NCBI GenBank assembly: GCA_913058395.1
Contig: CAJXQI010000030.1
Span: 1-32,976 of the forward strand
DNA length: 32,976 bases
Source: an uncultured Colwellia sp.
Lineage (GTDB): Bacteria; Pseudomonadota; Gammaproteobacteria; Enterobacterales; Alteromonadaceae
Direction: 5' to 3'
Part shown: positions 5,810 to 31,212 of the stretch, in pieces
Position numbering within the stretch: the stretch's first letter is position 1
Layout: every line of letters begins with the position of its first letter
Position numbers and translations under genes: made by a program
The notes under the pieces: model-generated
Database searches by the model: none
Told to the model about the DNA's origin: nothing
Seen by the model: the letters and a program-made list of their open reading frames with translations, nothing else

Positions 5810-7342
5810 ATGCCTATAGCCATTCGATCATTTTTCAGATATACGGTTTTGTTGATTTCTGTCCTCTCCAATTTTTCCTTCGCAGAAAGTCACCAACTTG
5901 ATATTAATGTTCCAAGAGGGGTTAAGGTTATTTCATTACCTTTTCCTCAAGAGGAGCTCATGTTAGATAGCAAAGTCTCGGTCAGTCTTGATGCTCACAT
6001 ACTTCCCGCTAATATTTCTTACTCATTGCTATGGCCACAAAAAATTGAGGCTCCTCGTAGTATAAGAGTACTTAATATTGAATTTGACGAAATACCCGTA
6101 AATTCATCGTTAGTTTCATTGAGGTGGCAGGTATCAGATCGCTTGTTGAAAAAAAGCCAGCTAAGTACAATGTTGAATGCACAAATGGTATACCCAGATT
6201 TAAATTGGCTTAGAAGGGCATTATTACTAACCAATAATAATGGTGTTGAAGAAGGTTGGTACCGAGATATACAAAAACTGACAGCGATTTATCTTGCCGA
6301 TGAAACACTACTAGCTAAAAAGGGTTACCCTAAGTCAGTGGCAAGCCAATGGCTGTATGACAAACCGCAGGCATTTTATCAATTGTTTCTTACTGATGGC
6401 GATCAAAAATTCAAACGACAAGCTGACCGTTACGTAGCGTTTTATAAAAATCAAATTGATGCTAAAGGCTATTTTAAGTTATCTAAACCAAAAGATATAA
6501 AATATTTGATGGGTAGATCCTTAGTGTATAGCTTTCTATTAAATCAAAACTACTCTTCTTTAGAAACTCTTGAAAGAATGTTCAACGCATCTCTAGATTG
6601 GCCATCGACATATTCTGGTAAGGGTTTTTGGACTGAACGTCATCATGCGGCAGCTATGAATATAGCGATAAGCTTTTGGGAGGTTTCAGGACGAGAGGAT
6701 GCTAAAAAGCGTGTTGATGAATTAGTGGAAGGGATTTTTCAGATGACGTTTTCTCCTCATGCCGATTGGCCTGTAAGAGGTTGTCCGCAGCATACTTTTA
6801 ATTCACATGAAGGCTGGGGGGATAATACTCCGGCTTGTTCGCCATGGATGATGGCACTTATTGCGGATAACTTATGGAGATACTATTTGTTAACCTCAGA
6901 TAAAAAGTCGTCATTGTTGTTGTCATCATTTGTAGATTTTCTGCTTGTTGAAGGTACTTATATAGCGAATGAAGGGAAAATAAAAGGGCACCTTGTACCT
7001 AAGTATTTAGTTTCTTTGGATAACTCAAAACAAGAAGAGTTAGACCCTTGGTCTGATCGAGAGCATACATGTGATGTAGCTGCAATGGTAGGAAAGGGGC
7101 TCTTTATAAAAAGGCAACTCGGCAAGGATTACCTGCGTCATAAAAAGCTGTTCAACCAATTGTCAGGTCTTTGTAAATTGAAGCACCTAGCAATTGTAGA
7201 AAAATACAAATATGTCAAATTGACCCAAATAAGCAGTAAGCCACCAAGGAAGTTCAATTGGCAGTATTCGTCAACAGATGATTTGCCGTGGCTAATGCAA
7301 GTATTAAATGCACCAAGTAACACATCAGTAGTAGAGGAATAA
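5810..7342 (+). CDS. Exported protein of unknown function in polysaccharide operon
   Basis: This 510-residue protein has a clear N-terminal signal peptide (positive start, hydrophobic core LLISVLSNFSFA, probable cleavage before ESHQ), so it acts in the periplasm or outside. I do not recognise the family with confidence. Residues about 20-110 look like a beta-rich domain. The rest is helical, with conserved-looking clusters WTERHHAAAMN (about 278-288), a Cys-containing stretch GCPQHTFNSHEGWG (about 324-337) and PWSDREHTCDVAAMVGKG. That pattern would suit an alpha/alpha-toroid glycan lyase or hydrolase; this is only an inference. The ATG at 5810 has GAGGA just upstream and lies 9 bases after the GT4 stop. 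Its last codons hold the ribosome binding site of the next gene, so it is firmly part of the operon. A role in trimming or modifying the exported glycan is plausible. Confidence 0.75.
   Translation: MPIAIRSFFRYTVLLISVLSNFSFAESHQLDINVPRGVKVISLPFPQEELMLDSKVSVSLDAHILPANISYSLLWPQKIEAPRSIRVLNIEFDEIPVNSSLVSLRWQVSDRLLKKSQLSTMLNAQMVYPDLNWLRRALLLTNNNGVEEGWYRDIQKLTAIYLADETLLAKKGYPKSVASQWLYDKPQAFYQLFLTDGDQKFKRQADRYVAFYKNQIDAKGYFKLSKPKDIKYLMGRSLVYSFLLNQNYSSLETLERMFNASLDWPSTYSGKGFWTERHHAAAMNIAISFWEVSGREDAKKRVDELVEGIFQMTFSPHADWPVRGCPQHTFNSHEGWGDNTPACSPWMMALIADNLWRYYLLTSDKKSSLLLSSFVDFLLVEGTYIANEGKIKGHLVPKYLVSLDNSKQEELDPWSDREHTCDVAAMVGKGLFIKRQLGKDYLRHKKLFNQLSGLCKLKHLAIVEKYKYVKLTQISSKPPRKFNWQYSSTDDLPWLMQVLNAPSNTSVVEE
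7334..7338 (+). promoter_or_regulatory. Ribosome binding site that fixes the TTG start of the acyltransferase
   Basis: GAGGA overlaps the last sense codons of the upstream gene and sits 6 bases before TTG at 7345. The TTG-initiated protein begins with the family-typical NYRSDIDGLRTIAV sequence. No ATG start is available at this position, so a TTG start is well supported. Confidence 0.7.
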
Positions 7343-7344
7343 TT

Positions 7345-9294
7345 TTGAATTATCGTAGTGATATAGATGGCTTGAGAACAATTGCAGTTTTTGTTGTTAT
7401 TCTCAATCACGCTGGGTTTAGTTTTTTTTCAGGTGGCTTTGTCGGTGTTGATGTATTCTTTGTAATATCTGGATTCTTAATTACTTCTATTATTTACCCT
7501 AGCATTGTTGAAGGGAACTTCAGCCTCACTAGGTTTTTCTCTCGTCGAATCAAGCGGCTTATGCCTGTTTTATTTTGTGTTATCGCCATTACAGCAATTG
7601 TTTTTAGTTTAATTATGTTGCCGCAAGATTTGATGCAATTCTACCGCAGTATTATTTGGGTATTAATGTATGCAGGTAACTTCTTTATGTGGCTTAATCA
7701 TGGCGGTTATTTCGATGGTAACTCTCAAGAAGCTCCACTACTACATACATGGTCATTAGCTGTTGAAGAACAATACTATTTTGTTTGGCCTATTATGCTA
7801 ATTGTCGCGGTGAGGTTTTTTGGTGCAAAAGTAACCGCTTGGCTTTCAGTTATACTATTTATTGCCTTGACAGTTTTTTCACAATGGGGCGTAGATGTTA
7901 CTGTTGGCGCAGCATATTATCTTTTACCTACACGCTTTTTCGAGCTACTGATTGGCTCATGCCTTGCGATTTTTTGGGTCAAACTGCCTGAATTAGGTCG
8001 TACTTCACAGCATGGACTATCCATTATTGGTTTATGTATGGTAATGATTAGCTCAATTATGCTTACTGAGCACTCTTCATTCCCCGGTTATAATGCGTTG
8101 TACCCAATAATAGGCACCGCGCTTATAATATATTCTCAAAAAGGGATCGTTAATAAATTTTTATCAACTAAAGCTATGGTCTATAGCGGCAACATTTCAT
8201 ATTCACTGTATTTGTGGCATTGGCCTATTTTTACTTTGATGCGCTATATGTCGATTGAACTGACTCTTACAGTACAAGTTTTTTGTATCGCTTTAACTTA
8301 TGCCCTTTCGATGCTTTCTTATCATTATATTGAGCAGCCGTTCAGGCATCTCAAACTTAATGATTTCAAATCTATTACGCTAAAGTTATATGTACTTCCA
8401 GCAAGTGTTTTGATTATTGTTTCTTGCCTTGGGATATACTTTAAGGGTTATGAAGGACGACTTCCTGAAAATGTTGTTGCTATGGAAAAGTCGCTTAATA
8501 CCCATTCAAGTAAATCTCGCCAATCTTGTCATTCAGCTTTTAGGGACAATAATAAGCTGCCGGCTGAAGATTGTATTTTAGGCACAAAAAGGGCCACAAA
8601 TGAAGGCAGTGGTGTATTTATTTTTGGCGATTCCCATGCGAACCATATAGTACCATTTATGGAAATATTAATTGATGATGTTGATGGGTGGGGTCAAGAC
8701 TATACATTAGATCGCTGTTTACCCATTGCAGGTTTAAACTGGGGTGGAGATCTATACAAATCAAAACGCTGCAAATCGAGAAATGACAAGGCCATAGAGC
8801 ACATAAAAAATAACAATTTTAAATACGTTGTGCTTGCAGCATCATGGCCTGGTATTGAAACCAGACGTATATTTGATGATTCAAAGCGTATTTTAGATGC
8901 TAAAGAAAAAGAGCAATTATTTCAAAATTCATTAATTGCTACATTACAGCTGGTGGTTAAGTCTGGAGCAACTCCTATCCTAGTAGAAGATACACCTACC
9001 TTGGCTGGAAAAAGTCCTAAGTGTACTATTAAAAAAATAGTTTTTGATTCAGAGATTAACTGTGATGTATTTATTGAAGAAAACCCTTTTATAGTAAAAG
9101 CTTTCCAGCAAGCCCAAGCGGTTATTCCAGAAAGCATAATTATCAAACCGAGTGAGCTATTTTGCCATGAAGGAGTGTGTCAGATGCAAGTAAATGGCAC
9201 GCCATTATTTAGAGATAATGACCACTTAAATATCGATGGAGCAAAGGAGCTTGCAAAGCGTCACTTAGAAATTCATGGCAACTTTATTAATTAA
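7345..9294 (+). CDS. OafA/YrhL-type acyltransferase-3 with C-terminal SGNH domain
   Basis: This 649-residue, two-domain membrane enzyme has an acyltransferase-3 domain at about 1-360. That domain opens NYRSDIDGLRTIAV, has the catalytic-type His22 in NHAGF, and HTWSLAVEEQYYFVWP at about 134-149, with around ten membrane helices. A periplasmic SGNH esterase/transferase domain covers about 400-649, with GDSH (Ser430) and the C-terminal DxxH pair Asp624/His627. Such fusions transfer acetyl or similar groups from cytoplasmic acyl-CoA through the membrane to glycans (O-antigen, capsule, peptidoglycan). Here the target is presumably the polysaccharide made by this locus. It starts at TTG 7345, two bases after the upstream stop, with a good GAGGA site. 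It is the last gene of the plus-strand operon, before a hairpin and the convergent GT2 gene. Confidence 0.93.
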   Translation: MNYRSDIDGLRTIAVFVVILNHAGFSFFSGGFVGVDVFFVISGFLITSIIYPSIVEGNFSLTRFFSRRIKRLMPVLFCVIAITAIVFSLIMLPQDLMQFYRSIIWVLMYAGNFFMWLNHGGYFDGNSQEAPLLHTWSLAVEEQYYFVWPIMLIVAVRFFGAKVTAWLSVILFIALTVFSQWGVDVTVGAAYYLLPTRFFELLIGSCLAIFWVKLPELGRTSQHGLSIIGLCMVMISSIMLTEHSSFPGYNALYPIIGTALIIYSQKGIVNKFLSTKAMVYSGNISYSLYLWHWPIFTLMRYMSIELTLTVQVFCIALTYALSMLSYHYIEQPFRHLKLNDFKSITLKLYVLPASVLIIVSCLGIYFKGYEGRLPENVVAMEKSLNTHSSKSRQSCHSAFRDNNKLPAEDCILGTKRATNEGSGVFIFGDSHANHIVPFMEILIDDVDGWGQDYTLDRCLPIAGLNWGGDLYKSKRCKSRNDKAIEHIKNNNFKYVVLAASWPGIETRRIFDDSKRILDAKEKEQLFQNSLIATLQLVVKSGATPILVEDTPTLAGKSPKCTIKKIVFDSEINCDVFIEENPFIVKAFQQAQAVIPESIIIKPSELFCHEGVCQMQVNGTPLFRDNDHLNIDGAKELAKRHLEIHGNFIN

Positions 9295-9312: not shown

Positions 9313-9351
9313 GAGTAGGTGTATAAGTGCAAAACTTGACACCTATAGCTC
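9313..9351. terminator. Hairpin between convergent genes
   Basis: TAGGTGT at 9316-9322 pairs with ACACCTA at 9339-9345, with an inner AAGT/ACTT pairing and outer GAG/CTC. It lies between the stops of the convergent acyltransferase and GT2 genes. No strong T-run follows on either strand, so it is a terminator-like or mRNA 3'-end structure rather than a textbook intrinsic terminator. Confidence 0.45.
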
Positions 9352-10465
9352 AATGCTTCTTCCACAACGACGTAATATCTTTAACAGTAAAGTATTTCCA
9401 AGCGGCAACTAAGGCTGCTAAGTTTAGGCTGCAAAAACTAATGCAAGTATTGATAAAAGGGAGTTTAGACTGATTGTATTTATAGCCGATAAATGTGTAG
9501 CTATAAAAGAAAATTTGGCTCCAAAATAAAACACCAATTGCAGTGAATGCCAAAAATGAGCTAGATATGAATAGCGATATTAACGCAAAAGGCATAATTA
9601 AACGGGCGACCTTGTGAGATATGAATTGAAAAAATAAAGGGTTGCTTTTAATTGATAGTAACCAAGGAAGCTGCTTAATTAATTGATAATTACCCGCCAG
9701 TGTTCTTACTTTTCGATAAAATTCTTCGGTTACTGTATTTGAACCAGTATCATAGGCTACTGCGCTCTCACAAAACTTAACTTTATAGCCTTGCTTTACA
9801 ATGCTGAGGGGGATGTACATATCGTCAAGTAAAGAGTCTTCAGGAACATCGGGGATTAAGCTTGAACGTGCCATGTAAATAGCACCAGTGACACCAAGTA
9901 CTGAATGCAATTCGCTTTCCTTAATACGAATCGACTTTTCATACTTCCAATACAGTCCCTGCTCGCTAGTACCTCCTAATGAGCGTATTTTTAAATTGCC
10001 ACTTACTGCCCCAATATTTTTATCAGCTAGTACAAAGGCTAAATGCTTTAGGGCTTGGTTATCAAAAGATTGCCTGATATCTGCGAAAGCGACCATTTCG
10101 GTTCTTACATGTTGTTTTGCATGTGATAATGCGAAAGATTTCCCTCTATTTTGAGAGTAATGTAGCAATTGAATACGACTATCGTTTAGCAGCTCAATCA
10201 CTTCTGATGGGTTGTCTGTAGAACCGTCGGAGACGACGAGTATTTTTACTTTGTCAGATGGGTAATCACTTTTGAATATATTCTCAATTCTTTTTGTTAG
10301 TTCGTTTCGGCTATTATATATGCACAAAACCACTGTAAGCTCAGGTAGTTCACTATGCGAAGTGACAGGCATTGTTTTTTCATTCTTTACAATTCTTAGT
10401 AATAACGGGTAGCCAATAAAGGTATAAAATAGAAAGAAAATACTCGTAAAAAAGATTGTTGTCAT
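9350..10465 (-). CDS. GT2-family glycosyltransferase, membrane-anchored
   Basis: This 371-residue protein has an N-terminal membrane helix (about 1-23) and a GT-A domain at about 40-230. The domain shows LTVVLCIYNSRNE, the nucleotide-binding VVSDGSTDNP (Asp80, Asp84), an ADIRQ metal-site equivalent at about 128-132 and the catalytic-base region LLDDMYIPL (Asp214/215). Two or three C-terminal helices follow, around 285-350. This layout is that of processive or semi-processive GT2 enzymes of the IcaA/hyaluronan-synthase type, though the QxxRW motif is not obvious. It is therefore more likely a single-sugar transferase. The ATG at 10465 has no Shine-Dalgarno sequence. A terminator separates it from the PEP-CTERM gene upstream, so it probably has its own promoter. 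It probably serves the same glycan as the genes to its left. Confidence 0.85.
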   Translation of the reverse strand: MTTIFFTSIFFLFYTFIGYPLLLRIVKNEKTMPVTSHSELPELTVVLCIYNSRNELTKRIENIFKSDYPSDKVKILVVSDGSTDNPSEVIELLNDSRIQLLHYSQNRGKSFALSHAKQHVRTEMVAFADIRQSFDNQALKHLAFVLADKNIGAVSGNLKIRSLGGTSEQGLYWKYEKSIRIKESELHSVLGVTGAIYMARSSLIPDVPEDSLLDDMYIPLSIVKQGYKVKFCESAVAYDTGSNTVTEEFYRKVRTLAGNYQLIKQLPWLLSIKSNPLFFQFISHKVARLIMPFALISLFISSSFLAFTAIGVLFWSQIFFYSYTFIGYKYNQSKLPFINTCISFCSLNLAALVAAWKYFTVKDITSLWKKH

Positions 10466-10579: not shown

Positions 10580-11578
10580 TTAAAGCTTTTTGCGGCCAAA
10601 TAAGCCAAAACCAATAAGACCTAAGCCAAATATTGCTAATGTAGAAGGCTCTGGAACAGCTCTAACTTTAAATTGTGCTAGTAAGTTGTTTTGTTGCTCT
10701 TCAATAGTAACAAAGCCAAAACATGCTGGTTGGTTATTCGAACATTCGTAACCATCAGAAAGTACTGTTAATCCAGAAAGGCGAGTCGTTACTAAGTATA
10801 CAGTATCTCCCCAACCAGGAATTGGTTGGTTTAATGAATCTACTAATACAAATGGTACTGTGAATTCTATGAAGTCAGGTCCAACAACAGGCTGAAAAGG
10901 TAACGCTTCTAAGCCAGTAATTTCGAATATATCTCCACAGCCGTTAATATTGTCACCAGTAAGGTGAGGGTTTCCATCAGGACAAGTGCCTGTAGGTGAA
11001 CCATTTACAGTTTCAAAGAAGTTAATACCAAATTGAAGTTGAGGTGCAAAATAAGGAGCATTGCTCGTTAGTGCGTTTACATCGTCGCCGTATGCTTCCC
11101 ATGCAGTAGGAGTTAATGATAAAGCATCGAATACAGTAGCCGTTTCTAAAGAATCACCTACAATAACCCAGTTTTCATGAGTAATATCTGTACCATTAGC
11201 CCAGCTTGCTCCATTAGTTGTAATTGAACCAACTACAGGGCTAGAAATGTCAAGGCTACTTTGTGGGTCTGAACTTACACCAGCTGGTGTTCCCCAAGTT
11301 AAACTCGTATGTAACGCATTATCTGCGCCATCAACAACGAAATCACCATTAGAGTCGATAATATTGCCAGTGTTTACTGTTAATGCACTATTGTCGCCAG
11401 TTGCAGAGTTACCTGAGGCTTCTACTTCATCATTTGCATAAGTAGTAGTTGATTGACCTGTATAGTCCTTAAAGCCAGCCTGGTTGTTGTAAGTCCATTC
11501 TGTAACAAGGCCTGCATTCGCTGCGCTTGTTAGAGTCGCTGTTAGCACAGCAGCAGCTAGTTTAAATTTAGTATTCAT
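10580..11578 (-). CDS. PEP-CTERM sorting-signal protein, THxN type
   Basis: This 332-residue exported protein has a signal peptide at 1-22 ending SAANA. Its C-terminal PEP-CTERM tripartite signal covers 308-332: VPEP, a hydrophobic Gly-rich helix and the basic end GRKKL. Thr133-His134-Glu135-Asn136 supplies the THxN motif of a known PEP-CTERM subfamily. The exosortase encoded by the next gene upstream is expected to cleave at the PEP motif and pass the protein to the outer surface or matrix. The mature region is rich in Thr, Asn, Ser and Gly and contains four cysteines in two close pairs (CPDGNPHLTGDNINGC and CSNNQPAC), which could form disulfides. The start ATG at 11578 has AAGGGAAG upstream. 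A sigma-54-type promoter lies about 50 bases upstream and an intrinsic terminator follows, so it is a single-gene unit. Its molecular role is unknown; matrix structure or adhesion is typical. Confidence 0.93.
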   Translation of the reverse strand: MNTKFKLAAAVLTATLTSAANAGLVTEWTYNNQAGFKDYTGQSTTTYANDEVEASGNSATGDNSALTVNTGNIIDSNGDFVVDGADNALHTSLTWGTPAGVSSDPQSSLDISSPVVGSITTNGASWANGTDITHENWVIVGDSLETATVFDALSLTPTAWEAYGDDVNALTSNAPYFAPQLQFGINFFETVNGSPTGTCPDGNPHLTGDNINGCGDIFEITGLEALPFQPVVGPDFIEFTVPFVLVDSLNQPIPGWGDTVYLVTTRLSGLTVLSDGYECSNNQPACFGFVTIEEQQNNLLAQFKVRAVPEPSTLAIFGLGLIGFGLFGRKKL

Positions 11579-11786: not shown

Positions 11787-13109
11787 TCATTCTATTTTAT
11801 GTATCTTCCAAATAAGTGCCGTGCCCCTCACGCCATTAAAAGCATTAAGTATTTTTAATATCTTAAGTTGTCTCAATGAAAAGGTTTCATCTTGCCCACT
11901 TTTGAAAATATAGTTAATTCTAAAACTACCTTTAGTGTGCTCAACGGTTAGTTCATTCCAGCCGTCTGAAATGAATGGCTGATGAGTTGTTAGGTTCACA
12001 GGAGTAAATTTATTAGCAAAATAATCTACAGAATCGCCTAACTCCTCTCCTTTAAATAAATACCGCGCTGTAAACCCTTCTTCATCTGCTTGTACACATA
12101 GGCTATGTGGTGATGATATTTGTGGTAACGGTAATAATGGAACATTATTTAAACAGTTAACTGTGTCATAACTTTTTGATACAGAGCCTATCGACTTCAC
12201 CATTGTTGGACTTGTTATTATTAATATTGCGAATGCGAATATTAAGGTGCTCAAAAGTGGTGTGCTAGGTTGTAAAGGTGTTGCTGTCTGGTGACTTGAA
12301 GTTGTGCTAAATTTTTGACCAACGTAAAAAAGAAAGAATAAAAAAGGAATATAAAGATACCAGCCAAAAGTATTATGGTCGGTCATTAAACTGCTTTCCA
12401 TATTTGTGTTGTGACCAATCATAATGAGCATTGCAATTCGCACCCAGTTAGTGATTAAAGCTCCTAAAACTGCAATCGTTATGAAAATTAAACCATGCTT
12501 CATATTTCTCACATTAAGGAATATGAATAAACTAGAGACTGATAAAGACACTAATAAGTAACGCAGGCCGCTGCAGCCTCCTGCAATTTCAAAAATCCCT
12601 GCAGGTATTGTAATGAAGTTACCTTCAACATACGTAGGGATTCCCGTTAGGCCCATAAAGTAAGTTACAGTATAGGTTGAAAGGGTTTGCAAATAGGGAG
12701 TTAATATTCCCCAAATAGGAAGTAAAAACACTAGGAATAAGGCAGGGAATAATACCCTAAATTTATTCTCAAAGATTAGCGCTATAATTGATGTATAGAA
12801 TAGAATGAAAAATATTCTATAGCCTGTTGTGAATTGCGCAATGGTAAAAATAACTAACGAAAAAGCAAATACCAATGTAACTGAAAGTGAAAAGTAATTT
12901 AACTTTCTGCTAAATTTTAGGCTCCCTTCTTGATATAACTCGTAGTATAGATAGCCCGTAATTACGGGGACAAGGTATGCATGTGAATAGGTGCCATCAT
13001 CAAAACTATATTGCCAAATATTCATTGCAATATCTAATTGCAATAGAATAAATATAAATGAAAAAAACAGCACCATAATTAAAGGAGCATATTGTTTAAA
13101 GAAAGTCAC
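11787..13109 (-). CDS. xrtA: Exosortase (XrtA-like) transpeptidase with EpsI-like C-terminal region
   Basis: This 440-residue inner-membrane protein has about eight helices and the exosortase catalytic triad: Cys179 in EIAGGCSGLRYL, Arg224 in NWVRIAM and His245 in DHNTFGW. Exosortases recognise PEP-CTERM tails, cut them and probably transfer the protein to another carrier. After the last helix (about 285-305) comes a soluble, periplasmic region of about 135 residues ending LNAFNGVRGTALIWKI. It is probably a short EpsI/DUF3485-type domain, as in exosortase A fusions. GTG at 13109 is the start, with AAAGGTGG four bases upstream. It follows prsT by about 60 bases that contain a strong hairpin, and precedes the PEP-CTERM gene. 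The exosortase call is very secure; subtype A is inferred from the neighbours PrsT and the acyltransferase. Confidence 0.93.
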   Translation of the reverse strand: MTFFKQYAPLIMVLFFSFIFILLQLDIAMNIWQYSFDDGTYSHAYLVPVITGYLYYELYQEGSLKFSRKLNYFSLSVTLVFAFSLVIFTIAQFTTGYRIFFILFYTSIIALIFENKFRVLFPALFLVFLLPIWGILTPYLQTLSTYTVTYFMGLTGIPTYVEGNFITIPAGIFEIAGGCSGLRYLLVSLSVSSLFIFLNVRNMKHGLIFITIAVLGALITNWVRIAMLIMIGHNTNMESSLMTDHNTFGWYLYIPFLFFLFYVGQKFSTTSSHQTATPLQPSTPLLSTLIFAFAILIITSPTMVKSIGSVSKSYDTVNCLNNVPLLPLPQISSPHSLCVQADEEGFTARYLFKGEELGDSVDYFANKFTPVNLTTHQPFISDGWNELTVEHTKGSFRINYIFKSGQDETFSLRQLKILKILNAFNGVRGTALIWKIHKIE

Positions 13110-13169: not shown

Positions 13170-15863
13170 TTACTTATTTAATAATTGCTCGGCAAGCTCA
13201 TTTTGATTATTTGCTTTATATGCTTGCGCCAAATGCAAAGTAATATCATCATTTTTAGGCGCTAGTTTTTTTGCTAACTTTAGTGTTTGAATTGCTTTTT
13301 CGAGTTCATTTCTTTTAGTGAGTATAATGCCCAAAGTATCAAGGATTTGGGGGTGTTCAGGTATTATTTTGATAGCCTCATTGACGTATTTTAAGGCCTG
13401 CTGATAATTCTCTTGCTGGTAGTATACCCATGCCAAATTATTATATGCAATTGCATTGTTAGGCTCATTTTCTAATAGCTCTTTATATTTATTGATCGCT
13501 TTGTTCGGAGATTTATTTATATAAAGTTCCGCTAAGAGAGATGTGAATGTTGTATTTTGAGGGGAGTTATCTACAAGTTGCTCCAGTAGGTTGATAGCAT
13601 CATCTGCTTTGCCTGATAACTTATATGAATTAACAAGGAATATTGCTGTATTATCCTTAGCATTTTTCTTATAAGACTCCTCTAAGAAGTTAATGGCTTC
13701 GTTATATTGAGAACGAGCCATAGCAACTTGCCCTTGCAAGCGCAGCACAAAAGCATGTGTAGGGTCTATTTCTACAAGGTTATTTATTTTCTGTGATGCT
13801 AATTCAAATTGTTTAGTCGCCAGCAAATAATAAGCCTGTAGTGATAACAATTGAAAATGAGATTTAAAGTGGCTTAAATTCAGGGCATTATTAGTAACCA
13901 TTAATGCATCTTGATAATTTTTCTGTCTATCAAGGAAGTCAATGTGGCTTAAAAAAGCTTTATCATTTTCTGGTTGTGCTGTTTGCCATTTTTGATACAT
14001 GTTCACCAAGTTAACCTTTTGCCCACTAAGTACTAGTGTGTTGGCTAATGCTTGAAAGTAAACTGTTGGTAAGTTTTGATATTCATTTAGCTCATTAAGA
14101 GTTTCGATGCTTTTGCTGAATTCTCCTTTCGCTGTGTAACGTCGCGATAGAATAATTCTTGGCCAAACGGCACTTGAATGCTCATTGATAATTTGGATGA
14201 ATCTTTGTTCTAGTTTTGAGTCTTTTCCTTCCGCTACTGCATTACTGATTGCCAGAGGGTATGTATAAGGATACTCAATATCAATAGATAATATTTTATT
14301 TAATAGTTCATTTGAATGAGCGTAGTTTTTATTCTCTGATGCAATGATAGCTAGGTTAAATAAGGGGACTACGTTACTACTGTCTATCTTAAAAGCAGTA
14401 TTAAAAAACTCTTTGGCCTTTTCAGTTTTTTTAGCTTTTAAAGCAATGTTGCCATTTAATATGAGTGCAGAAATGCTTTCTGGGTTTTCTTTTAGCCATA
14501 ACTGAGCTATTTTTTCTGCTTTATCAATTTCTCCTTTTTTTACATGGCTCATCGCTAGAATGATATTAGCAGATTTGAATTGGGGGTCGAGAGCTAAGGC
14601 TTGTTCTAGCTCCTTAAGCCCTGAATTATCATCTTTGGAAAGTTTTAACATGCCAAGTTGCGCTTTAATTTGAGCGTTATCTGGCGCTAGAGTAGCTGCT
14701 TTATTGAGCATCTCTTGTGCGCTTTGGGTATCACCTTTTTTTACATACTCTTGCCCTAAGTTTGCATAGAGTAAGGCATCTACGTTTGTTAATTCACTAA
14801 GAGTTTCGGATAAACCGTCTGTGTATCCAAGCTTTACTTGTAATAAGGCTAATATACTATGAACTTGATGACTTTTGGGCAGGTGATCTGCAATAGCATT
14901 TAATTGGTAATATGCTTGTTCATGTTCTTTTAAGTAAAAACTACTCAAGCCAGAAATCATCTGTGCTAAACCATTATTAGTTGCATTAACAACTTCATTT
15001 GACAGTTCTTTTGCATCATCATAATTTTTTTCTGAAAATGCTAGTTGGGCTGCTAACAAATTTACGGTAGGGTGTTTGTCATTTATTTTTACTAACTTTT
15101 CAATATGTGGCTTTGCTAAATCAAACTTGCCAGCTTTTATATAGTTGTGCGCAACAAGTGTTTGAATAGCAAAGTTATGAGGTTTCAGTTCAAAATATTT
15201 AAGGTATGATTCTGCAGCTTGGCTGTATTGCTTTATGTTCGAATGTATACTTCCTTTTAGAAGCCAAGCATCAGGTAGTTTGCTATTTGAAACGGTTAAA
15301 GCTGTTAATATTTCCAACGCTTTTTCTTGCTTTTCATCATAAGCAAAAATTAAGGCTTGACCTAATAAGCTATATTGGGATTGTTCATTAATTTGTATTG
15401 CTTGCTGTATAAGGTTTCTAGCCGGTTCAATTTTTTTTAGGCTTAGATTTGCTTTTGCACCAATTAATAATGCATGCATTCTTTCATCGTCATCGCTAAA
15501 TGATACGTTTTGTAATGTCTTCAACGCTTCTGAAGTTTGATTTAATAAAAGTTGTGTTTTAGCTAATAAAAGAATGGCGCCTTCATTCTCGGCATCATCT
15601 TTTAATACTCTTCTAAACTCCTTTTCGGCACCAAGAAAATTATCATTAAATAGATATATCTTCCCTAGCATAAATCGTGCACTAAGGTGTTGAGGATCTT
15701 TTTGTAATATATTTTTCAAGTTAATAGTCGCGGTAGATAACTGTCCTTGTTGAAATAAGCTCTCGGCTTCCTTAAAAAGTACCGTATTATCTTTAGGGCT
15801 AGTGCATGCAGTTATACACAAAACTAACATTATGGTAGTAACATGAAAAAATTTATTTTTCAT
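13170..15863 (-). CDS. prsT: PEP-CTERM system TPR-repeat lipoprotein PrsT
   Basis: This large exported lipoprotein (897 residues from ATG 15863) starts MKNKFFHVTTIML and has a lipobox CITAC with the lipidated Cys at about residue 20. The frame extends seven codons further up to an ATG at 15884, but AAAAGGA lies six bases before 15863 and nothing suitable precedes 15884, so I take the shorter form. The whole mature part is tandem TPR helices (many copies of the A-x-Y-P/LG-x-A pattern, for example NNAIAYNNLAWVYYQQENYQQALKYV near the C-terminus). Length and architecture match the PEP-CTERM/exosortase-A TPR lipoprotein family. Its role is not proven; it may be an outer-membrane scaffold for polysaccharide export or PEP-CTERM protein assembly. 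It lies directly upstream of the exosortase and about 64 bases after the ThiF-like gene. Confidence 0.9.
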   Translation of the reverse strand: MKNKFFHVTTIMLVLCITACTSPKDNTVLFKEAESLFQQGQLSTATINLKNILQKDPQHLSARFMLGKIYLFNDNFLGAEKEFRRVLKDDAENEGAILLLAKTQLLLNQTSEALKTLQNVSFSDDDERMHALLIGAKANLSLKKIEPARNLIQQAIQINEQSQYSLLGQALIFAYDEKQEKALEILTALTVSNSKLPDAWLLKGSIHSNIKQYSQAAESYLKYFELKPHNFAIQTLVAHNYIKAGKFDLAKPHIEKLVKINDKHPTVNLLAAQLAFSEKNYDDAKELSNEVVNATNNGLAQMISGLSSFYLKEHEQAYYQLNAIADHLPKSHQVHSILALLQVKLGYTDGLSETLSELTNVDALLYANLGQEYVKKGDTQSAQEMLNKAATLAPDNAQIKAQLGMLKLSKDDNSGLKELEQALALDPQFKSANIILAMSHVKKGEIDKAEKIAQLWLKENPESISALILNGNIALKAKKTEKAKEFFNTAFKIDSSNVVPLFNLAIIASENKNYAHSNELLNKILSIDIEYPYTYPLAISNAVAEGKDSKLEQRFIQIINEHSSAVWPRIILSRRYTAKGEFSKSIETLNELNEYQNLPTVYFQALANTLVLSGQKVNLVNMYQKWQTAQPENDKAFLSHIDFLDRQKNYQDALMVTNNALNLSHFKSHFQLLSLQAYYLLATKQFELASQKINNLVEIDPTHAFVLRLQGQVAMARSQYNEAINFLEESYKKNAKDNTAIFLVNSYKLSGKADDAINLLEQLVDNSPQNTTFTSLLAELYINKSPNKAINKYKELLENEPNNAIAYNNLAWVYYQQENYQQALKYVNEAIKIIPEHPQILDTLGIILTKRNELEKAIQTLKLAKKLAPKNDDITLHLAQAYKANNQNELAEQLLNK

Positions 15864-15927
15864 CAGAAGTCCTTTTGAATGCATGATGACTAAGTATCAT
15901 TAAAAATTATTTTTATAATTAGATAGT

Positions 15928-16779
15928 CTACTTGGATACTATATGCTTAGCAATTTTAAACATTATTCTTGGTAGGAGCCCTGCATTACCAAATGGTCGC
16001 CAGGTTTTGGTAAATTTATTTCGGTAAGCATCAAAGTGTAGGCCGTGCGGCGCGCACACTATATCTCCGCGATTCAGTAATATTTTTAATGCGTATGTTC
16101 CGGCAATGCCGGCACACATATTTACGGCCATTGGCGTTGAAGGGCCACGTTTTTCGGTAAAATTGACACGTGAATCATCAACTAAGTATGGTCTTTGCAA
16201 CATCGCAGGAGAAAGACCAATTAAAAATTGTATCAATTGATCTTCTTCTGACTTCCCGGCAAAGCGAAAATAGTTTTCGTAAGACATTTTTCCGGGCATA
16301 AAGCATAGAAATGCGCAGCCCATACCTAAAGGTGCAGCAGTAATTACGGGAATATTTTTTTCATGGCACTTTTGAAAAACTACTTTTCTTGCTTCCAAAG
16401 CAAAAAAATCTAGGGCATCGACATAAATGTCTACATCGACGAGGAACTCATCAACATTGTGAGAAAATATACCTTCTGGAAAAGTGGTTATATTCGCTTC
16501 TGGGTTAATATCTTTAGCAATATTCTCCATTACATCGACTTTTTGTTGACCCAAAGTTGACATAAAAGCACCAGACTGACGATTGAAGTTGTGTACCTCA
16601 AAATCGTCAAAATCTGAAATATTAAAATTGCTGATCCCCAAGCGAGCTAATGTCACCAAATGAATACCACCAACGCCGCCAGCGCCAGCTATTGCCACTT
16701 TTTTATTTTTGAGTTGTTGTTGCTCTTCTTCCGTGACCCAGCCAATGTTTCTGGAAAATGCTTTTTGATAATCAAACAT
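15928..16779 (-). CDS. ThiF/MoeB/E1-like adenylyltransferase of exosortase locus
   Basis: This 283-residue protein has the E1-type Rossmann nucleotide loop GAGGVGG at 32-38, the acidic pair in SDFDDFEVHNFNRQ with the invariant-type Asn66-Arg67-Gln68, a conserved Lys (QQKVDVM, about 79) and a DALDFF segment equivalent to the ThiF/MoeB D-x-x-D region. These bind ATP and adenylate a C-terminal carboxylate. I see no CxxC zinc pairs, unlike MoeB and ThiF, and no ubiquitin-like or ThiS/MoaD partner gene is visible. The substrate is therefore open. The C-terminal 40 residues are basic and amphipathic and might touch the membrane. It lies 66 bases after the LuxI-like acyltransferase gene and 64 bases before prsT on one strand. 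I infer that it works with the acyltransferase in making a small molecule or a modification. The ATG at 16779 has AGGGA upstream. Confidence 0.85.
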   Translation of the reverse strand: MFDYQKAFSRNIGWVTEEEQQQLKNKKVAIAGAGGVGGIHLVTLARLGISNFNISDFDDFEVHNFNRQSGAFMSTLGQQKVDVMENIAKDINPEANITTFPEGIFSHNVDEFLVDVDIYVDALDFFALEARKVVFQKCHEKNIPVITAAPLGMGCAFLCFMPGKMSYENYFRFAGKSEEDQLIQFLIGLSPAMLQRPYLVDDSRVNFTEKRGPSTPMAVNMCAGIAGTYALKILLNRGDIVCAPHGLHFDAYRNKFTKTWRPFGNAGLLPRIMFKIAKHIVSK

Positions 16780-16845
16780 TTTTTTCCCTATTTATGGTTA
16801 CTTGATATACTAAATACAGTTTAAGCCAGCGGATGAAAAAAGTAC

Positions 16846-17664
16846 TTATTCAACTAGAGATAAGTGCTTACAAATGTCCTTTGCAATAGAGTCATAAAGA
16901 GATTTAAAGCCTGGAGTTAGGTTTTCCATAAATATGGTTGGACTTATGTAGTAGGGTGCACGCATGCCGTGATAATCGATGGCGTCACCTAATTGGATAA
17001 AATTGATACCAACGAACTTCATACTACGCGCTAACCTTGGCTCCATCATCACATAAACATGCTTAACACCGGTTTCTATACTCATTGTTGCTGCAGCCAT
17101 ATATAAGCCTATAGCAATAAAAGGAAAGCAGCGCAGTTCAGTCTCAGAGTAATTTGTCTCGCTTATAGCACCTACTGCTGAACCTTTAAACTTATCGGCT
17201 TTACGTCGTCTGAAGTCCGACTTCACCGCTAAACGAGATATCTCTGCTATTTCATGGCGTGGAAAATTAGAGGGATGTAATTTATTATTATGAATGGCAT
17301 TAATACAATACTTTTCTATAGGTAATAGCTCGCTCTCATTTGCAGATCTAACTACTCTAACGCAACTGGTGTAGGTATCAGAAGGTTTATGCTTAATCAT
17401 GGAAAATATTGATTGTGCATCAAACTCATCTTGTTCCATGCCCTCTTCTTTTACCTTTTCAAAGGCGAGCTCTTCACAATAAACATTATGACGTATACGA
17501 AAAACCTCATTTCGTAGTATCTCATTTATTGCAACTTCAGGTTTTAAGAATTGGGTGAAATGCTCAGCAATATTCATTGCATCATGATTTACTTTCATTG
17601 ATGCAATTTTTTTTGTAATGTTCCCAAAGACAGGCGCGTTTAGCAATTTCTTGCTCCAATTCAT
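16846..17664 (-). CDS. PEP-CTERM/exosortase system-associated acyltransferase (LuxI-like GNAT)
   Basis: This 272-residue protein aligns by eye with the exosortase-associated acyltransferase family, related to LuxI autoinducer synthases and N-acyl amino acid synthases. The N-terminal signature R-x-R-H-x-V-Y-C-E-E-L-x-F-E is at 56-69, the core strand TSCVRVVRS is at about 99-107, and the LuxI-type EISRLAV is at about 143-149. The family is presumed to move a fatty acyl group from acyl-ACP or acyl-CoA to an amine; product and purpose are unknown. Start ATG 17664 has GGAG upstream. The intergenic region to the patatin gene is 142 bases and holds two TATAAT boxes on the minus strand, so this may be the first gene of the acyltransferase-ThiF-prsT-xrtA run. 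A true LuxI quorum-sensing role is possible but no LuxR is nearby. Confidence 0.87.
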   Translation of the reverse strand: MNWSKKLLNAPVFGNITKKIASMKVNHDAMNIAEHFTQFLKPEVAINEILRNEVFRIRHNVYCEELAFEKVKEEGMEQDEFDAQSIFSMIKHKPSDTYTSCVRVVRSANESELLPIEKYCINAIHNNKLHPSNFPRHEIAEISRLAVKSDFRRRKADKFKGSAVGAISETNYSETELRCFPFIAIGLYMAAATMSIETGVKHVYVMMEPRLARSMKFVGINFIQLGDAIDYHGMRAPYYISPTIFMENLTPGFKSLYDSIAKDICKHLSLVE

Positions 17665-17806: not shown

Positions 17807-18637
17807 TTACTTTAGTTTAAGTTCCCCCTTAGTTTTAAAAGGTACTATTTCCATTGCAGTGCTATAACCAACATTAAATAAACGCGCTTTTTCTTCCTTG
17901 CTCATGGCAAAATCGACAGCTGAAGTTAATCCGGTATTGATAATAATAGTGTTATGCCAAAAAGCGTCATTTATGTATTCACGTGATATTGTCGTCATAA
18001 AAGTTCTAATGAGTAATGTAACGTAATTAACGATGGGAAATAGCCCATTGGTTTTTAGCTCATCATATTCATATTCTCCTCTCAAACGAAAGCATAACAC
18101 TGGTGTACCATCCATAGCCCAATCCCGATGCAAAGCGTCCTCTGATAAGATACTACCGTCCACCATTAAATGCTTACCAAAGCTTTTAAAGCTGAAGATG
18201 AGTGGGATGGACATTGAGAACCTTACCGCCAAAGATATTTTCATTCCCGGTGTTCTTTGTCTATTGAAAATTACTGGTCGGCCTGTTTTCACGTCTGTGG
18301 CAACTATATGTAAATTGTAGTTTAAATCTGCAAAGGTTTTTCCATTTAAGTGTTGATCGATCCATTGCTCGAATATGTCACCGGAACTTAACCCACCATT
18401 TCGTATTAACCCTAACAATGAAAAACCTCTGAACTGGCTATAATTGGTATTCATTGCAATATGTTTTATTTCTTCTAATGATAGTTCTGAAGCGTACAAG
18501 CTAGCAATAATACTACCTCCTGATACACCAACAATATGAGAAAAATCAATTGGTAGTTCTTTTAGTGCTTGTAGAACTCCAATATGTGCGGGTAGACGAG
18601 TGCCACCACCAGCTAAAATAGGTACTATTTCCGCCAC
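17807..18637 (-). CDS. Patatin-like phospholipase
   Basis: This 276-residue protein has the patatin/RssA lipase elements. The oxyanion-hole glycine loop AGGGTR is at 9-14, the nucleophile elbow GVSGGS has Ser39, and the catalytic-dyad Asp160 is in VDGS. The glycine loop continues TRLPAH instead of the more usual GxRG, a small deviation that some proteobacterial branches share. No signal peptide is visible, so it is cytoplasmic or peripheral, hydrolysing acyl esters of phospholipids or lipids. It precedes the acyltransferase gene on the same strand with 142 bases between. Its association with a LuxI-like acyltransferase hints at supply or turnover of acyl groups; that is inference. It is divergent from the S1C protease gene. 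Confidence 0.88.
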   Translation of the reverse strand: MAEIVPILAGGGTRLPAHIGVLQALKELPIDFSHIVGVSGGSIIASLYASELSLEEIKHIAMNTNYSQFRGFSLLGLIRNGGLSSGDIFEQWIDQHLNGKTFADLNYNLHIVATDVKTGRPVIFNRQRTPGMKISLAVRFSMSIPLIFSFKSFGKHLMVDGSILSEDALHRDWAMDGTPVLCFRLRGEYEYDELKTNGLFPIVNYVTLLIRTFMTTISREYINDAFWHNTIIINTGLTSAVDFAMSKEEKARLFNVGYSTAMEIVPFKTKGELKLK

Positions 18638-18759: not shown

Positions 18760-19524
18760 ATGATTCGTATTATTCAAATATTTATACTTCTGCAGCTAAC
18801 ATATAGTGTCGCTGCCTATAGTAATTTAGTTGAAACTGTTAAATTGATTAAACCGTCGGTAGTCGGAATTGGTGTTTACACGCCTACGGGTCAGCCTAAA
18901 AATAGGCTTTATGGCAGTGGTTTTGTTATCGGGAACGGCACTTATATTGTTACTAATCATCATGTGATTGATAAAGAACTAGATGATAGTTTATTGCAAA
19001 AACTTGCGATCTTCAGTGGTAAAGGTACTGAAACTAAAGTGAGAATTGCATCTCTTATTGCCAATGACAAAGAACATGATATTGCGATTCTAAAAATCGA
19101 TGGGCAGCCATTGCCAGCAATGCAGCTATCGAATAATGATTTTCGCCTTGAAGGCAGTGATGTTGCATTTACCGGTTTCCCGATTGGTGCTGTACTAGGG
19201 CTTTATCCGGTAACACATAAAGGCATGATTGCCGCAGTAACGCCAACTATTATCCCGCTTGATGATTCAAGACAAATTAGTATCGCAATGTTAAAACGGC
19301 TGCGTGATCCTTACTTAGTCTATCAGTTGGATGCAACTGCATATCCAGGCAATAGCGGTAGTGCGATGTATGATGTTAAAACAGGAGCAGTGATAGGCAT
19401 TATTAATAAAGTGTTTGTGCAGCAGAGCAAAGAGACGGTTATCAGTAAACCTAGCGGTATTACCTACGCAATACCTGTGAAATATTTACATCAACTGTTA
19501 AAGAAGCATAAGATTAAAATCTAA
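18760..19524 (+). CDS. Exported S1C (DegP/HtrA-type) serine protease without PDZ domain
   Basis: This 254-residue protein has a signal peptide at about 1-19 (IIQIFILLQLTYSVAA). The trypsin-like domain shows the full catalytic triad: His68 in TNHHVID, Asp107 in EHDIAIL and Ser199 in YPGNSGSAM. The chain ends about 35 residues after the protease core, so no PDZ domain is present, in contrast to DegP/DegS. It is expected in the periplasm. The substrate is unknown, and quality control or processing of exported PEP-CTERM or matrix proteins is one possibility suggested by position. The start ATG 18760 follows AAAGAG. The gene is divergent from the patatin gene and convergent with yibQ (44 bases between stops), so it marks the junction between the exosortase locus and the housekeeping block. 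Confidence 0.88.
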   Translation: MIRIIQIFILLQLTYSVAAYSNLVETVKLIKPSVVGIGVYTPTGQPKNRLYGSGFVIGNGTYIVTNHHVIDKELDDSLLQKLAIFSGKGTETKVRIASLIANDKEHDIAILKIDGQPLPAMQLSNNDFRLEGSDVAFTGFPIGAVLGLYPVTHKGMIAAVTPTIIPLDDSRQISIAMLKRLRDPYLVYQLDATAYPGNSGSAMYDVKTGAVIGIINKVFVQQSKETVISKPSGITYAIPVKYLHQLLKKHKIKI

Positions 19525-30711: not shown

Positions 30712-31212
30712 ATGAAAACACATAAACTATATTGCGCAATAAAGCCTTATTTGGCTATAGGTGTTACCGCACTGTGCTTAACAACTTTTAATGCCAGTGC
30801 CGTAGGTCATAATCACGACGGTAATGGCAAATCTCATACTGGCCAACATCACAGTAGTGAGCAAGAAGGCCATAAAAGACAAATGAAGAAACGCTTTAAA
30901 ATGCTGGCACATAAGTTAGACCTTACCAAAGCGCAGCGTCAAGAGATTCGAACAATTTTTACTGAGATGAAAGCTGATAAGAAAGAACATCGGGCAACAA
31001 TGTCAGGGTTTAAAGAGCAAGTTGGAATTTTGGCACAAGCAGATGAGTTTGATGAAAGTAAATTCAAAACATTGTATGTAGAATTTCAGGATGAATTTCA
31101 AGTTTTGGCGATGGAAAAAGCTAAAATGCGCCATGCAATAATGCAAATACTGACACCAGAACAGCAAGATAAATTTTCGTCAATGCGTAAACAACGTGGG
31201 CCTTTATTTTAA
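30712..31212 (+). CDS. cpxP: CpxP/Spy-family periplasmic protein
   Basis: This 166-residue protein has a signal peptide of about 30 residues (hydrophobic core AIGVTALCLTTF, ending NASA) and a His/Gly-rich linker (VGHNHDGNGKSHTGQHHSS). A helical domain follows with two LTxxQ motifs: LDLTKAQRQEIRTIF and QILTPEQQDKF. These motifs define the CpxP/Spy group of chaperones and inhibitors, in which CpxP binds and restrains CpxA until misfolded proteins titrate it. The His-rich linker could bind metal, which is inference. The gene is divergent from cpxR, and its last 9 bases overlap the end of the M56 gene on the other strand. Confidence 0.88.
   Translation: MKTHKLYCAIKPYLAIGVTALCLTTFNASAVGHNHDGNGKSHTGQHHSSEQEGHKRQMKKRFKMLAHKLDLTKAQRQEIRTIFTEMKADKKEHRATMSGFKEQVGILAQADEFDESKFKTLYVEFQDEFQVLAMEKAKMRHAIMQILTPEQQDKFSSMRKQRGPLF

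What the first reader, a model, noticed from the sequence alone, without database searches (positions are those of the whole stretch)
15928..17664. LuxI-like acyltransferase paired with a ThiF/E1-like adenylyltransferase inside an exosortase locus
Seen: two adjacent genes with intact core motifs (R-x-R-H..YCEEL, EISRLAV; GAGGVGG, NFNRQ) on one strand with prsT and the exosortase. Known: LuxI-like exosortase acyltransferases and E1-like enzymes each activate or transfer acyl groups, but their product in PEP-CTERM systems is not established. Inference: they may jointly make an acylated small molecule, a lipid anchor or a carrier to which exosortase transfers cleaved PEP-CTERM proteins. No ubiquitin-like or sulfur-carrier partner is visible, so the E1 would act on an unusual carboxylate.
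Basis: partly seen in the sequence, partly recalled or inferred. Interest (0 to 1): 0.72.

Follow-up and report, generated by a model that had tools for sequence, protein, structure and literature searches.

The report
Exosortase-locus lipid synthase and cyclase pair
Two neighbouring genes in a marine bacterium's surface-protein sorting operon look like the first two enzymes of a lipid pathway that joins a fatty acid to an amino acid and then closes the product into a reactive ring; the chemistry is known elsewhere, but here the usual third enzyme is missing, and the ring-closing enzyme was found almost only in bacteria that own this protein-sorting system.

Summary
[quoted passage not shown] Best reading: NAS makes an N-acyl amino acid; the E1 adenylates its carboxylate and closes an oxazolone (azlactone), as ThiF partners do in the published tyz and trz pathways. 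On a Nitratidesulfovibrio plasmid synthase, E1 and desaturase are one 989-residue protein among XrtA/PEP-CTERM-associated genes. The third enzyme, a nitroreductase-type desaturase, was not found in the window's genome nor, as a strong match, in 69 of 92 E1-bearing genomes of its family, so the predicted product is a saturated, reactive azlactone or what it turns into. All 92 have an exosortase match, against 57 of 104 without E1; class-wide 25 of 26 against 53 of 248. Apparently new: the cyclase's exosortase dependence and the widespread desaturase-less form.

The parts
16846..17664 (-). [quoted passage not shown]
   Evidence: TIGR03694 266 bits vs cut-off 111.95; Acetyltransf_5, FeeM and Autoind_synth in Pfam; R58, E77, D82, R103, E141, S143, R144 invariant in 40 of 40 rows (window residues checked)
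15928..16779 (-). ThiF/E1-like adenylyltransferase, predicted N-acyl amino acid cyclase, 283 aa
   Evidence: NF006077 410 bits vs cut-off 266; nearest solved relative of the family profile is TcdA 4d7a, E 2.8e-25; R10, GxGGxG, D58, N64, N66-R67-Q68, K80, D121, D124 invariant in 26 of 26 rows; no CxxC
13170..15884 (-). prsT, TPR protein of the XrtA/PEP-CTERM system, 43 bp after the E1
   Evidence: TIGR02917 606 bits vs cut-off 312; gap
11787..13109 (-). exosortase, 440 aa
   Evidence: TIGR02602 185 bits vs cut-off 105.55; XrtA 164 bits, below its 208 cut-off; candidate Cys (GGCSG), Arg (NWVRI) and His (DHNTFGW) visible in the translation (assignment recalled)
10580..11578 (-). THxN-family PEP-CTERM protein, presumed exosortase substrate
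   Evidence: NF038125 148 bits vs cut-off 85; C-terminus VPEPSTLAIFGLGLIGFGLFGRKKL
17807..18637 (-). patatin-like lipase upstream of the synthase; recurrent neighbour in this bacterial family
   Evidence: Pfam Patatin 109 bits; GVSGG and DGS motifs; patatin in 18 of 21 family loci examined, next to the synthase in 15
9350..10465 (-). GT2 glycosyltransferase at the end of the run (exopolysaccharide side of the locus)
   Evidence: Pfam Glycos_transf_2; same order in L133, L134, L138

Best explanation
The two genes are the first two steps of an acyl-oxazolone (azlactone) lipid pathway that serves the exosortase/exopolysaccharide system. Step 1: the LuxI/FeeM-type synthase moves a fatty acyl group from a carrier to the amino group of an amino acid. 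Step 2: the E1-like enzyme adenylates the free carboxylate of that N-acyl amino acid with ATP, and the amide oxygen displaces AMP to give a 2-alkyl-oxazol-5-one. In many relatives a nitroreductase-type flavin oxidase then desaturates the amino-acid side; here no such enzyme was found in the genome, so the route should stop at the saturated azlactone, which is electrophilic and would be hydrolysed, kept as a lipid, or react with an amine or hydroxyl. SHOWN here by computation: family membership, conserved adenylation residues, operon-like order, near-exclusive co-occurrence of the E1 with exosortase in the genomes sampled, synthase-E1-desaturase fusion among XrtA-associated genes, no hit for the desaturase profile. 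SHOWN by others in related systems: N-acylation, ATP-dependent cyclisation, and that the cyclised saturated intermediate accumulates when the oxidase is crippled. INFERRED: that this E1 uses this synthase's product, the amino acid and chain length, the final product, and its role in exosortase or exopolysaccharide function.
For: Family scores; invariant adenylation residues. E1 beside synthase: lower ends of the two matches within 1.2 kb in 72, 5 kb in 88, 10 kb in 90 of 92 family genomes. E1 and TIGR03694 co-occur class-wide: 20 of 26 E1 genomes against 13 of 248 others. Three-domain fusion FeeM-ThiF-nitroreductase, 989 aa, between XrtA-associated polysaccharide genes and two THxN PEP-CTERM genes on pDVUL01. 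Exosortase in 92 of 92 and 25 of 26 E1 genomes. Closest solved relative is TcdA, which also activates and cyclises a small N-substituted amino-acid carboxylate (recalled). Desaturase profile silent in G000; it finds strong matches in 22 family genomes that were not in the profile, down to 160 bits. Published: TyzA/B/C and TrzA/S chemistry, TrzS D217A loses cyclisation, R540A or low O2 leaves the cyclised saturated compound (PMC10404671, PMC12856293); ThiF + nitroreductase + NAS genes in thalassotalic acid, kyonggic acid and stieleriacine producers (PMC12479983); an exosortase-linked NAS of Methylomonas LW13 is needed for normal polysaccharide band formation, restored by complementation (PMC11072679).
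Against: No product has been measured from any exosortase-linked desaturase-less pair in what I read. Of 80 named E1 loci, 44 show no synthase within the fetched stretch by my local profile, 36 of these 44 beta-proteobacterial by record title (taxonomy recalled), so adjacency is strong in the window's family but loose elsewhere; the synthase may lie further off or escape my profile. Three of 26 class loci show no synthase in the fetched stretch. In the class survey 13 of 33 TIGR03694 genomes have no E1 and 10 of 33 no exosortase, so the synthase also occurs without either. Sauer et al. state that no acyl-oxazolones were observed for thalassotalic acids, kyonggic acids or stieleriacines. The LW13 phenotype is not specific: disruptions of two unrelated genes gave the same band defect, and none of the three mutants increased in viable count in the gradient; whether LW13 has the E1 was not checked. 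Genome-level tests are not corrected for common descent.
Confidence: 0.6

Rival explanations
1. The full dehydro-amino-acid pathway: the end product is an N-acyl dehydro-amino acid or dehydro-oxazolone as in thalassotalic acids, with the desaturation done here by an unrelated or unlinked oxidoreductase.
For: Thalassotalea sp. PP2-459, a gamma-proteobacterium, has NAS, ThiF and nitroreductase genes in operon-like order and makes thalassotalic acids, N-acyl dehydrotyrosines (PMC12479983). A genome of the window's family, G139, has NAS-E1-nitroreductase in that order. Loss of a desaturase could be compensated.
Against: No match of the desaturase profile in G000 nor in the other 7 sampled genomes of its genus. 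Members of 17 further gene clusters around E1 in family loci were scanned, one each and two for c4; none is a flavin oxidase, though UDP-sugar dehydrogenases are present and five gave no Pfam match. A desaturase elsewhere in the genome, of another family, is not excluded.
Confidence: 0.15
2. The E1 activates the N-acyl amino acid so that it is joined to an amine (a lipid, sugar or protein N-terminus) rather than cyclised: an amide-forming lipid conjugation step that feeds the exosortase system, for example by making the acceptor for cleaved PEP-CTERM proteins.
For: E1 enzymes make acyl-adenylates; the exosortase association is very strong. For archaeosortase, genes for making an amine-bearing lipid, in some species beside artA, are required for lipid anchoring (PMC7157517, passages).
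Against: No conserved transferase gene beside the pair was recognised; the characterised ThiF partners of NAS enzymes that I read about cyclise (PMC10404671, PMC12856293). An N-acyl amino acid without a second amine cannot itself be the nucleophile.
Confidence: 0.12
3. The E1 acts on a ubiquitin-like or sulphur-carrier protein (ThiS/MoaD type) and its position is incidental.
For: Same superfamily as ThiF and MoeB; the genome has two further ThiF-family genes.
Against: No Gly-Gly-ending small ORF in the window by the test; no CxxC and no cysteine invariant in the 26-row alignment; scores far under ThiF, MoeB and TcdA cut-offs; [quoted passage not shown] exosortase association.
Confidence: 0.04
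4. The association with exosortase is only shared ancestry: EPS/exosortase islands are inherited as blocks and the lipid pathway has no functional tie to protein sorting.
For: Fisher values ignore phylogeny; E1 and exosortase lie within 50 kb of each other in only 63 of 92 genomes; 57 exosortase genomes of the family lack E1.
Against: E1 genomes of the class sample carry 19 family codes, 18 of them with exosortase (counted by eye); 34 of 34 E1 genera are among the 43 exosortase genera of 52 (p 1.3e-5 by random draw, not tree-corrected); in one genus (g254) the genome without exosortase also lacks E1 though it keeps a synthase, but that genome is 84% complete.
Confidence: 0.2

Closest known systems
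Acyl-oxazolone pathways TyzABC and TrzAS of mycobacteria (PMC10404671, PMC12856293) and OxzAB of Pseudoalteromonas rubra (as described in those papers)
   Same: N-acyltransferase (FeeM/AHL-synthase fold for TyzA) next to a ThiF-type cyclase; conserved adenylation Asp; ThiF-nitroreductase fusions also occur in the E1 family here, sharing one frame in 7 of the 23 family genomes with the desaturase; MMPL gene beside tyz and in 11 of 26 class loci
   Different: No oxidase found in the window's genome; located in an exosortase/PEP-CTERM operon, which the two mycobacterial papers do not mention (0 occurrences)
N-acyl dehydrotyrosine clusters (thalassotalic acids, kyonggic acids, stieleriacines; PMC12479983, PMC7293339)
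   Same: NAS + ThiF cluster; a PEP-CTERM gene in the Stieleria maiorica cluster
   Different: Those have the nitroreductase; the 2025 paper does not mention exosortase or PEP-CTERM (0 occurrences)
PEP-CTERM/exosortase-linked N-acyl amino acid synthases (Craig, Cherry and Brady 2011; not held, known through citing papers)
   Same: NAS genes beside PEP-CTERM/exosortase genes (as cited in PMC7293339)
   Different: I could not read whether that paper mentions the ThiF partner
TcdA (CsdL), tRNA threonylcarbamoyladenosine dehydratase
   Same: Nearest solved structures to the E1 profile (4d7a, 4yed, E about 3e-25); small carboxylate activation and ring closure (recalled)
   Different: 68.5 bits against a cut-off of 304; tRNA-bound substrate (recalled)

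Membership tests
TIGR03694 exosortase-associated acyltransferase / N-acyl amino acid synthase | score over the curated cut-off | tested here: met
   266 bits vs 111.95
TIGR03694 exosortase-associated acyltransferase / N-acyl amino acid synthase | LuxI/FeeM-type invariant Arg, Asp, Glu residues including the Glu of E-x-S-R | tested here: met
   R58, E77, D82, R103, E141, S143, R144 in 40 of 40 rows; that E141 equals the catalytic Glu95 of FeeM (named in PMC4897644, passages) is inferred
TIGR03694 exosortase-associated acyltransferase / N-acyl amino acid synthase | makes N-acyl amino acids | not testable with these tools
   needs expression and mass spectrometry
Acyl-oxazolone synthase system (Oxz/Tyz/Trz) | N-acyltransferase gene beside or fused to the ThiF gene | tested here: met
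   66 bp apart; fused in the pDVUL01 relative
Acyl-oxazolone synthase system (Oxz/Tyz/Trz) | ThiF domain with intact ATP/adenylation residues | tested here: met
   GxGGxG, D58, N66-R67-Q68, K80, D124 aligned with TcdA and ThiF; equivalence of D124 to TrzS D217 is inferred, no Tyz/Trz/Oxz sequence was compared
Acyl-oxazolone synthase system (Oxz/Tyz/Trz) | nitroreductase-type flavin-dependent oxidase | tested here: not met
   profile A2 finds none in G000 at E 0.001 (10 of the 13 genomes that ring there gave rows to the profile, the other three ring weakly) and none at 1e-10 in the family search, where 22 genomes outside the profile give strong matches. Not filed as a full member; it works like the first two steps
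Acyl-oxazolone synthase system (Oxz/Tyz/Trz) | makes an oxazolone | not testable with these tools
ThiF/MoeB-type activators of sulphur carriers | carrier protein with C-terminal Gly-Gly nearby | tested here: not met
   none in the window by the test; the rest of the genome was not searched for carriers
ThiF/MoeB-type activators of sulphur carriers | CxxC zinc motif or conserved catalytic cysteine | tested here: not met
   no CxxC in the E1; no cysteine among invariant columns of A1; Cys138 is invariant in the closer set A3
TcdA | score over the curated cut-off of PRK15116 | tested here: not met
   68.5 vs 304 bits
Exosortase (TIGR02602) | score over the curated cut-off | tested here: met
   184.8 vs 105.55 bits
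XrtA (TIGR03109) | score over the curated cut-off | tested here: not met
   164.3 bits and 165.9 vs 208

The most novel reading that the evidence does not exclude
The desaturase-less pair makes a saturated lipid azlactone that is used as a pre-activated acyl donor outside the cytoplasm, where there is no ATP: the activated N-acyl amino acid acylates an amine or hydroxyl of the exopolysaccharide, a lipid or a PEP-CTERM protein, giving the lipid anchor or acceptor that exosortase needs. This would explain why the cyclase is found almost only with exosortase and why lipid-traffic genes flank it in other lineages.
Probability: 0.1. Interest if true: 0.88.

Novelty: new variant of a known kind. Interest (0 to 1): 0.55.

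Why it matters
What exosortases attach their cleaved substrates to, and why they travel with exopolysaccharide genes, is open as far as I know (recalled, not searched). [quoted passage not shown] Here the two questions meet: among 468 different genomes sampled (274 in the class, 196 in the family, G000 and G139 in both) the putative oxazolone cyclase was found over its cut-off in only one without any exosortase match, G098, and in the window's family 69 of 92 carriers have no strong desaturase match. That makes a cheap, decisive experiment possible: delete the cyclase and look at both lipids and PEP-CTERM anchoring.

Tried and rejected
Rejected: E1 as a sulphur-carrier or ubiquitin-like activator. 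Rejected: counting all TIGR03694 hits. Of 82 of 274 genomes with a hit at E 0.001 only 33 pass the cut-off; the one weak hit I examined, G146, is an ornithine N-acyltransferase (OlsB-like), so only hits over the cut-off were used in the statistics. Rejected: reading very long frames such as G061's 1379-aa and G146's 996-aa frames as fusions; in the parts scanned (901 and 996 aa) the acyltransferase is the only recognised domain. Led nowhere: inverted repeats, promoter and terminator scans of the operon (promoters 28 against 32.7 expected, terminators 7 against 5.3). A first search for the desaturase with one protein had no positive control and was replaced by profile searches. Papers not held: Craig 2011 and Burroughs 2009 on the E1-like superfamily; I recall that the latter discusses E1 domains fused to nitroreductases, so the fusions may already be in print. 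Literature searches, in a library of openly licensed PubMed Central papers only, for exosortase with ThiF and with oxazolone each gave one paper; the second was checked by passages and is unrelated, the first, on Geobacter IHF, was judged from its listing only.

Selection effects: the 20 family loci were chosen by me because those genomes lack the desaturase, so counts in the tree (64 with it nearby, 59 without, 3 unclear) are not frequencies; frequencies come. The 80 named loci are the best 80 of 452. Family-level synthase matches were cut at the tail of the listing. Three of the 69 'desaturase-less' E1 genomes (G286, G366, G395) have weak remote hits of 58-97 bits, which I did not count as the desaturase; of the 10 class genomes without it near the E1, G223, G124 and G247 have weak remote hits of 24-87 bits and the other seven none.
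Full report
WHAT IS THERE. Window ORFs 16846-17664(-) and 15928-16779(-) are a TIGR03694 acyltransferase (266 bits, cut-off 111.95) and an NF006077/PRK08223 ThiF-like protein (410 bits, cut-off 266). They stand in a same-strand run patatin [142] NAS [66] E1 [43] prsT [60] exosortase [208] THxN PEP-CTERM protein, gaps in bp. The exosortase passes the general model but not the XrtA model. Further along are polysaccharide genes: flippase-like, O-antigen-ligase-like, glycosyltransferases, AT3-SGNH acyltransferase. The genome (G000, 4.39 Mb, 99.96% complete) has one TIGR03694 match and three ThiF-family matches.

ACTIVE SITES. In 26 E1 sequences the adenylation apparatus is invariant: Arg10, the GxGGxG loop, Asp58, Asn64, Asn66-Arg67-Gln68, Lys80, Asp121, Asp124. 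From the glycine loop on, these fall on like residues of TcdA and ThiF in the printed alignments; TcdA, ThiF and MoeB are the nearest solved families. There is no CxxC in the window's E1, and no cysteine is invariant in the 26-row alignment. Cys138 is invariant in the 47-row alignment A3, a set closer to the window. The synthase keeps its Arg, Asp and Glu residues in 40 of 40 rows, and its profile matches AHL synthases in the PDB (best E 3e-9).

WHO ELSE HAS IT. In 274 genomes drawn evenly from the class, 26 carry the E1, 33 the synthase and 78 an exosortase over cut-off. E1 and exosortase: 25 of 26 against 53 of 248, Fisher p 1.9e-14. E1 and synthase: 20 of 26 against 13 of 248, p 8.5e-17. 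Synthase and exosortase: 23 of 33 against 55 of 241, p 1.7e-7. E1 and XrtA over cut-off: 23 of 26 against 27 of 248. In 196 genomes of the window's own family, 92 carry the E1, 149 an exosortase at E 1e-10, 147 over cut-off, and 137 the synthase. All 92 E1 genomes have an exosortase match against 57 of 104 without E1, p 1.9e-16; for two of them, G391 and G422, it is under the cut-off. At genus level the 34 E1 genera are all among the 43 exosortase genera of 52, probability 1.3e-5 by random draw. The two samples share G000 and G139. None of these tests is corrected for relatedness.

HOW CLOSE. In the family sample the E1 match lies within 1.2 kb of a synthase match (lower end to lower end) in 72, within 5 kb in 88 and within 10 kb in 90 of 92 genomes. 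E1 and exosortase share a contig in 73 of 92 and lie within 50 kb in 63. G299 (L133) has the window's order patatin, synthase, E1, prsT, exosortase, PEP-CTERM, GT2; G311 (L134) and G351 (L138) have it with two genes, of a UDP-sugar-dehydrogenase and an epimerase cluster, between patatin and synthase. Against a simple picture: my local profile finds a synthase within 5 kb in 19 of 26 class loci (23 of 26 in the whole fetched stretches, counting FeeM-cNMP fusions), in 20 of 20 chosen family loci, but in only 31 of 80 named loci; 44 of those 80 show none in the fetched stretch.

THE THIRD ENZYME. In 16 of 26 class loci a nitroreductase-type protein is fused to the E1 or lies near it. In 7 of the 23 family genomes with a strong match the two share one frame of 653-683 aa. 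A profile of 16 of these proteins finds nothing in G000 at E 0.001; it rings in 13 of 20 genomes of that search, but 10 of the 13 gave rows to the profile and the other three ring weakly, so that control is by construction. The better control is the family sample: 23 genomes have a strong match (150 bits or more), 22 of them not in the profile; all 23 are E1 genomes. The other 69 of 92 E1 genomes have no strong match (three have weak remote ones), including 8 of 8 of the window's genus. On a tree of 126 E1 sequences the presence of the desaturase nearby needs 16 changes, at least 11 if only well-supported branches count; the window lies in a mostly desaturase-less set (23 without, 3 with, of 26). 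The tree is a quick one, three long branches in it are unsure, and 20 of its rows were chosen as desaturase-less.

THE TELLING FUSION. On plasmid pDVUL01 of Nitratidesulfovibrio vulgaris DP4 one 989-residue protein carries a FeeM-type synthase (residues 43-198, Pfam 150 bits), the E1 (313-585) and the nitroreductase (from about 609), between a TPR protein with genes annotated as XrtA-associated polysaccharide genes on one side and two genes annotated as THxN PEP-CTERM proteins on the other. The exosortase gene itself is not in the stretch shown. The window's PEP-CTERM protein is of the same THxN family. Fusion implies one pathway, and its site suggests a tie to protein sorting. The other plasmid hit followed up, in Bdellovibrio (45% identity), has no annotated exosortase or synthase in the 11.5 kb shown, though most genes there are unnamed, so relatives of the E1 may occur in other company.

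EXPORT. In the fetched class stretches the E1 often sits with lipid-traffic genes: LolA-like protein and an outer-membrane-type protein in 15 of 26 each, MMPL transporter in 11, FtsX/MacB-type permeases in 6 ('outer-membrane' for cluster c5 is my inference, Pfam shows only LysM in the member scanned). The window has none of these that I recognised; its family instead keeps a patatin gene, in 18 of 21 loci examined, next to the synthase in 15. The mycobacterial tyz genes are likewise flanked by mmpL9 (PMC10404671, section 5).

MECHANISM. In PMC10404671 (abstract, sections 5, 8, 9 and passages) TyzA N-acylates tyrosine, TyzB, a ThiF homologue, carries out the ATP-dependent cyclisation to an acyl-oxazolone, and TyzC the desaturation. 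In PMC12856293 (abstract, sections 7, 8 and passages) the ThiF-oxidase fusion TrzS cyclises first; loss of the conserved Asp stops everything, crippling the oxidase or limiting oxygen leaves the cyclised saturated compound. [quoted passage not shown] PMC7293339 (sections 8 and 9, passages) proposed a cyclic intermediate and noted a PEP-CTERM gene in the Stieleria maiorica cluster. So the best account of the window pair is N-acylation followed by carboxylate activation and ring closure, stopping at the saturated azlactone. PMC11072679 (section 20, passages) shows that an exosortase-linked synthase in Methylomonas LW13 is needed for a normal polysaccharide band; two unrelated mutants had the same defect and none of the three grew in the gradient, so this is a weak pointer.

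WHAT IS NEW. Known: synthase near exosortase (2011 paper, through citations), synthase plus ThiF plus nitroreductase as an oxazolone or dehydrotyrosine route. Not found in print in my searches of openly licensed papers (and zero occurrences of exosortase in the papers): that the ThiF partner itself depends on the exosortase system, and that a widespread branch lacks the desaturase. I therefore call it a new variant of a known kind. The bold reading, an activated lipid for exosortase-linked anchoring, is open, has no direct support and is put at 0.1.

Noticed in passing
L012:9381-10613, L015:4339-5583, L026:118-1314, L030 about 5914-7098: Beside the E1 (in G247, L026/L027, on the same contig but over 20 kb away) four genomes carry a FeeM-type synthase followed by a cyclic-nucleotide-binding domain (Pfam shown for L012 only, where a weak winged-helix-like match follows), as if lipid synthesis were tied to cyclic nucleotide sensing.
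   Followed up: partly
L026:1363-3600: Next to such a synthase lies a 745-residue neuropathy-target-esterase-like protein: cyclic-nucleotide-binding domains plus patatin; the window has a simple patatin next to its synthase.
   Followed up: partly
window 31204-32925: A 573-residue protein joins a BlaR1-type M56 peptidase domain to a TonB C-terminal domain.
   Followed up: no
window 18760-19524: A divergently transcribed trypsin-like (HtrA-type) protease recurs beside the patatin gene in many of the family loci examined, often with polysaccharide deacetylase, EnvC and phosphoglycerate mutase genes beyond it.
   Followed up: no
window 7345-9294: AT3 acyltransferase fused to an SGNH domain, in the polysaccharide part of the locus.
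   Followed up: no
window 5810-7342: 510-residue protein without any Pfam or NCBIfam match at E 0.001; relatives lie in similar loci, for example L138.
   Followed up: no
L136 around 8481-9266 and L053: Beside the E1 are genes of one cluster (c14), four in a row in L136 and one in L053; the member scanned is a PEP-CTERM protein.
   Followed up: no
L031:9483-12473: TIGR03694 gives a weak hit to an ornithine-lipid acyltransferase (OlsB-like), a trap for surveys that ignore the cut-off.
   Followed up: yes
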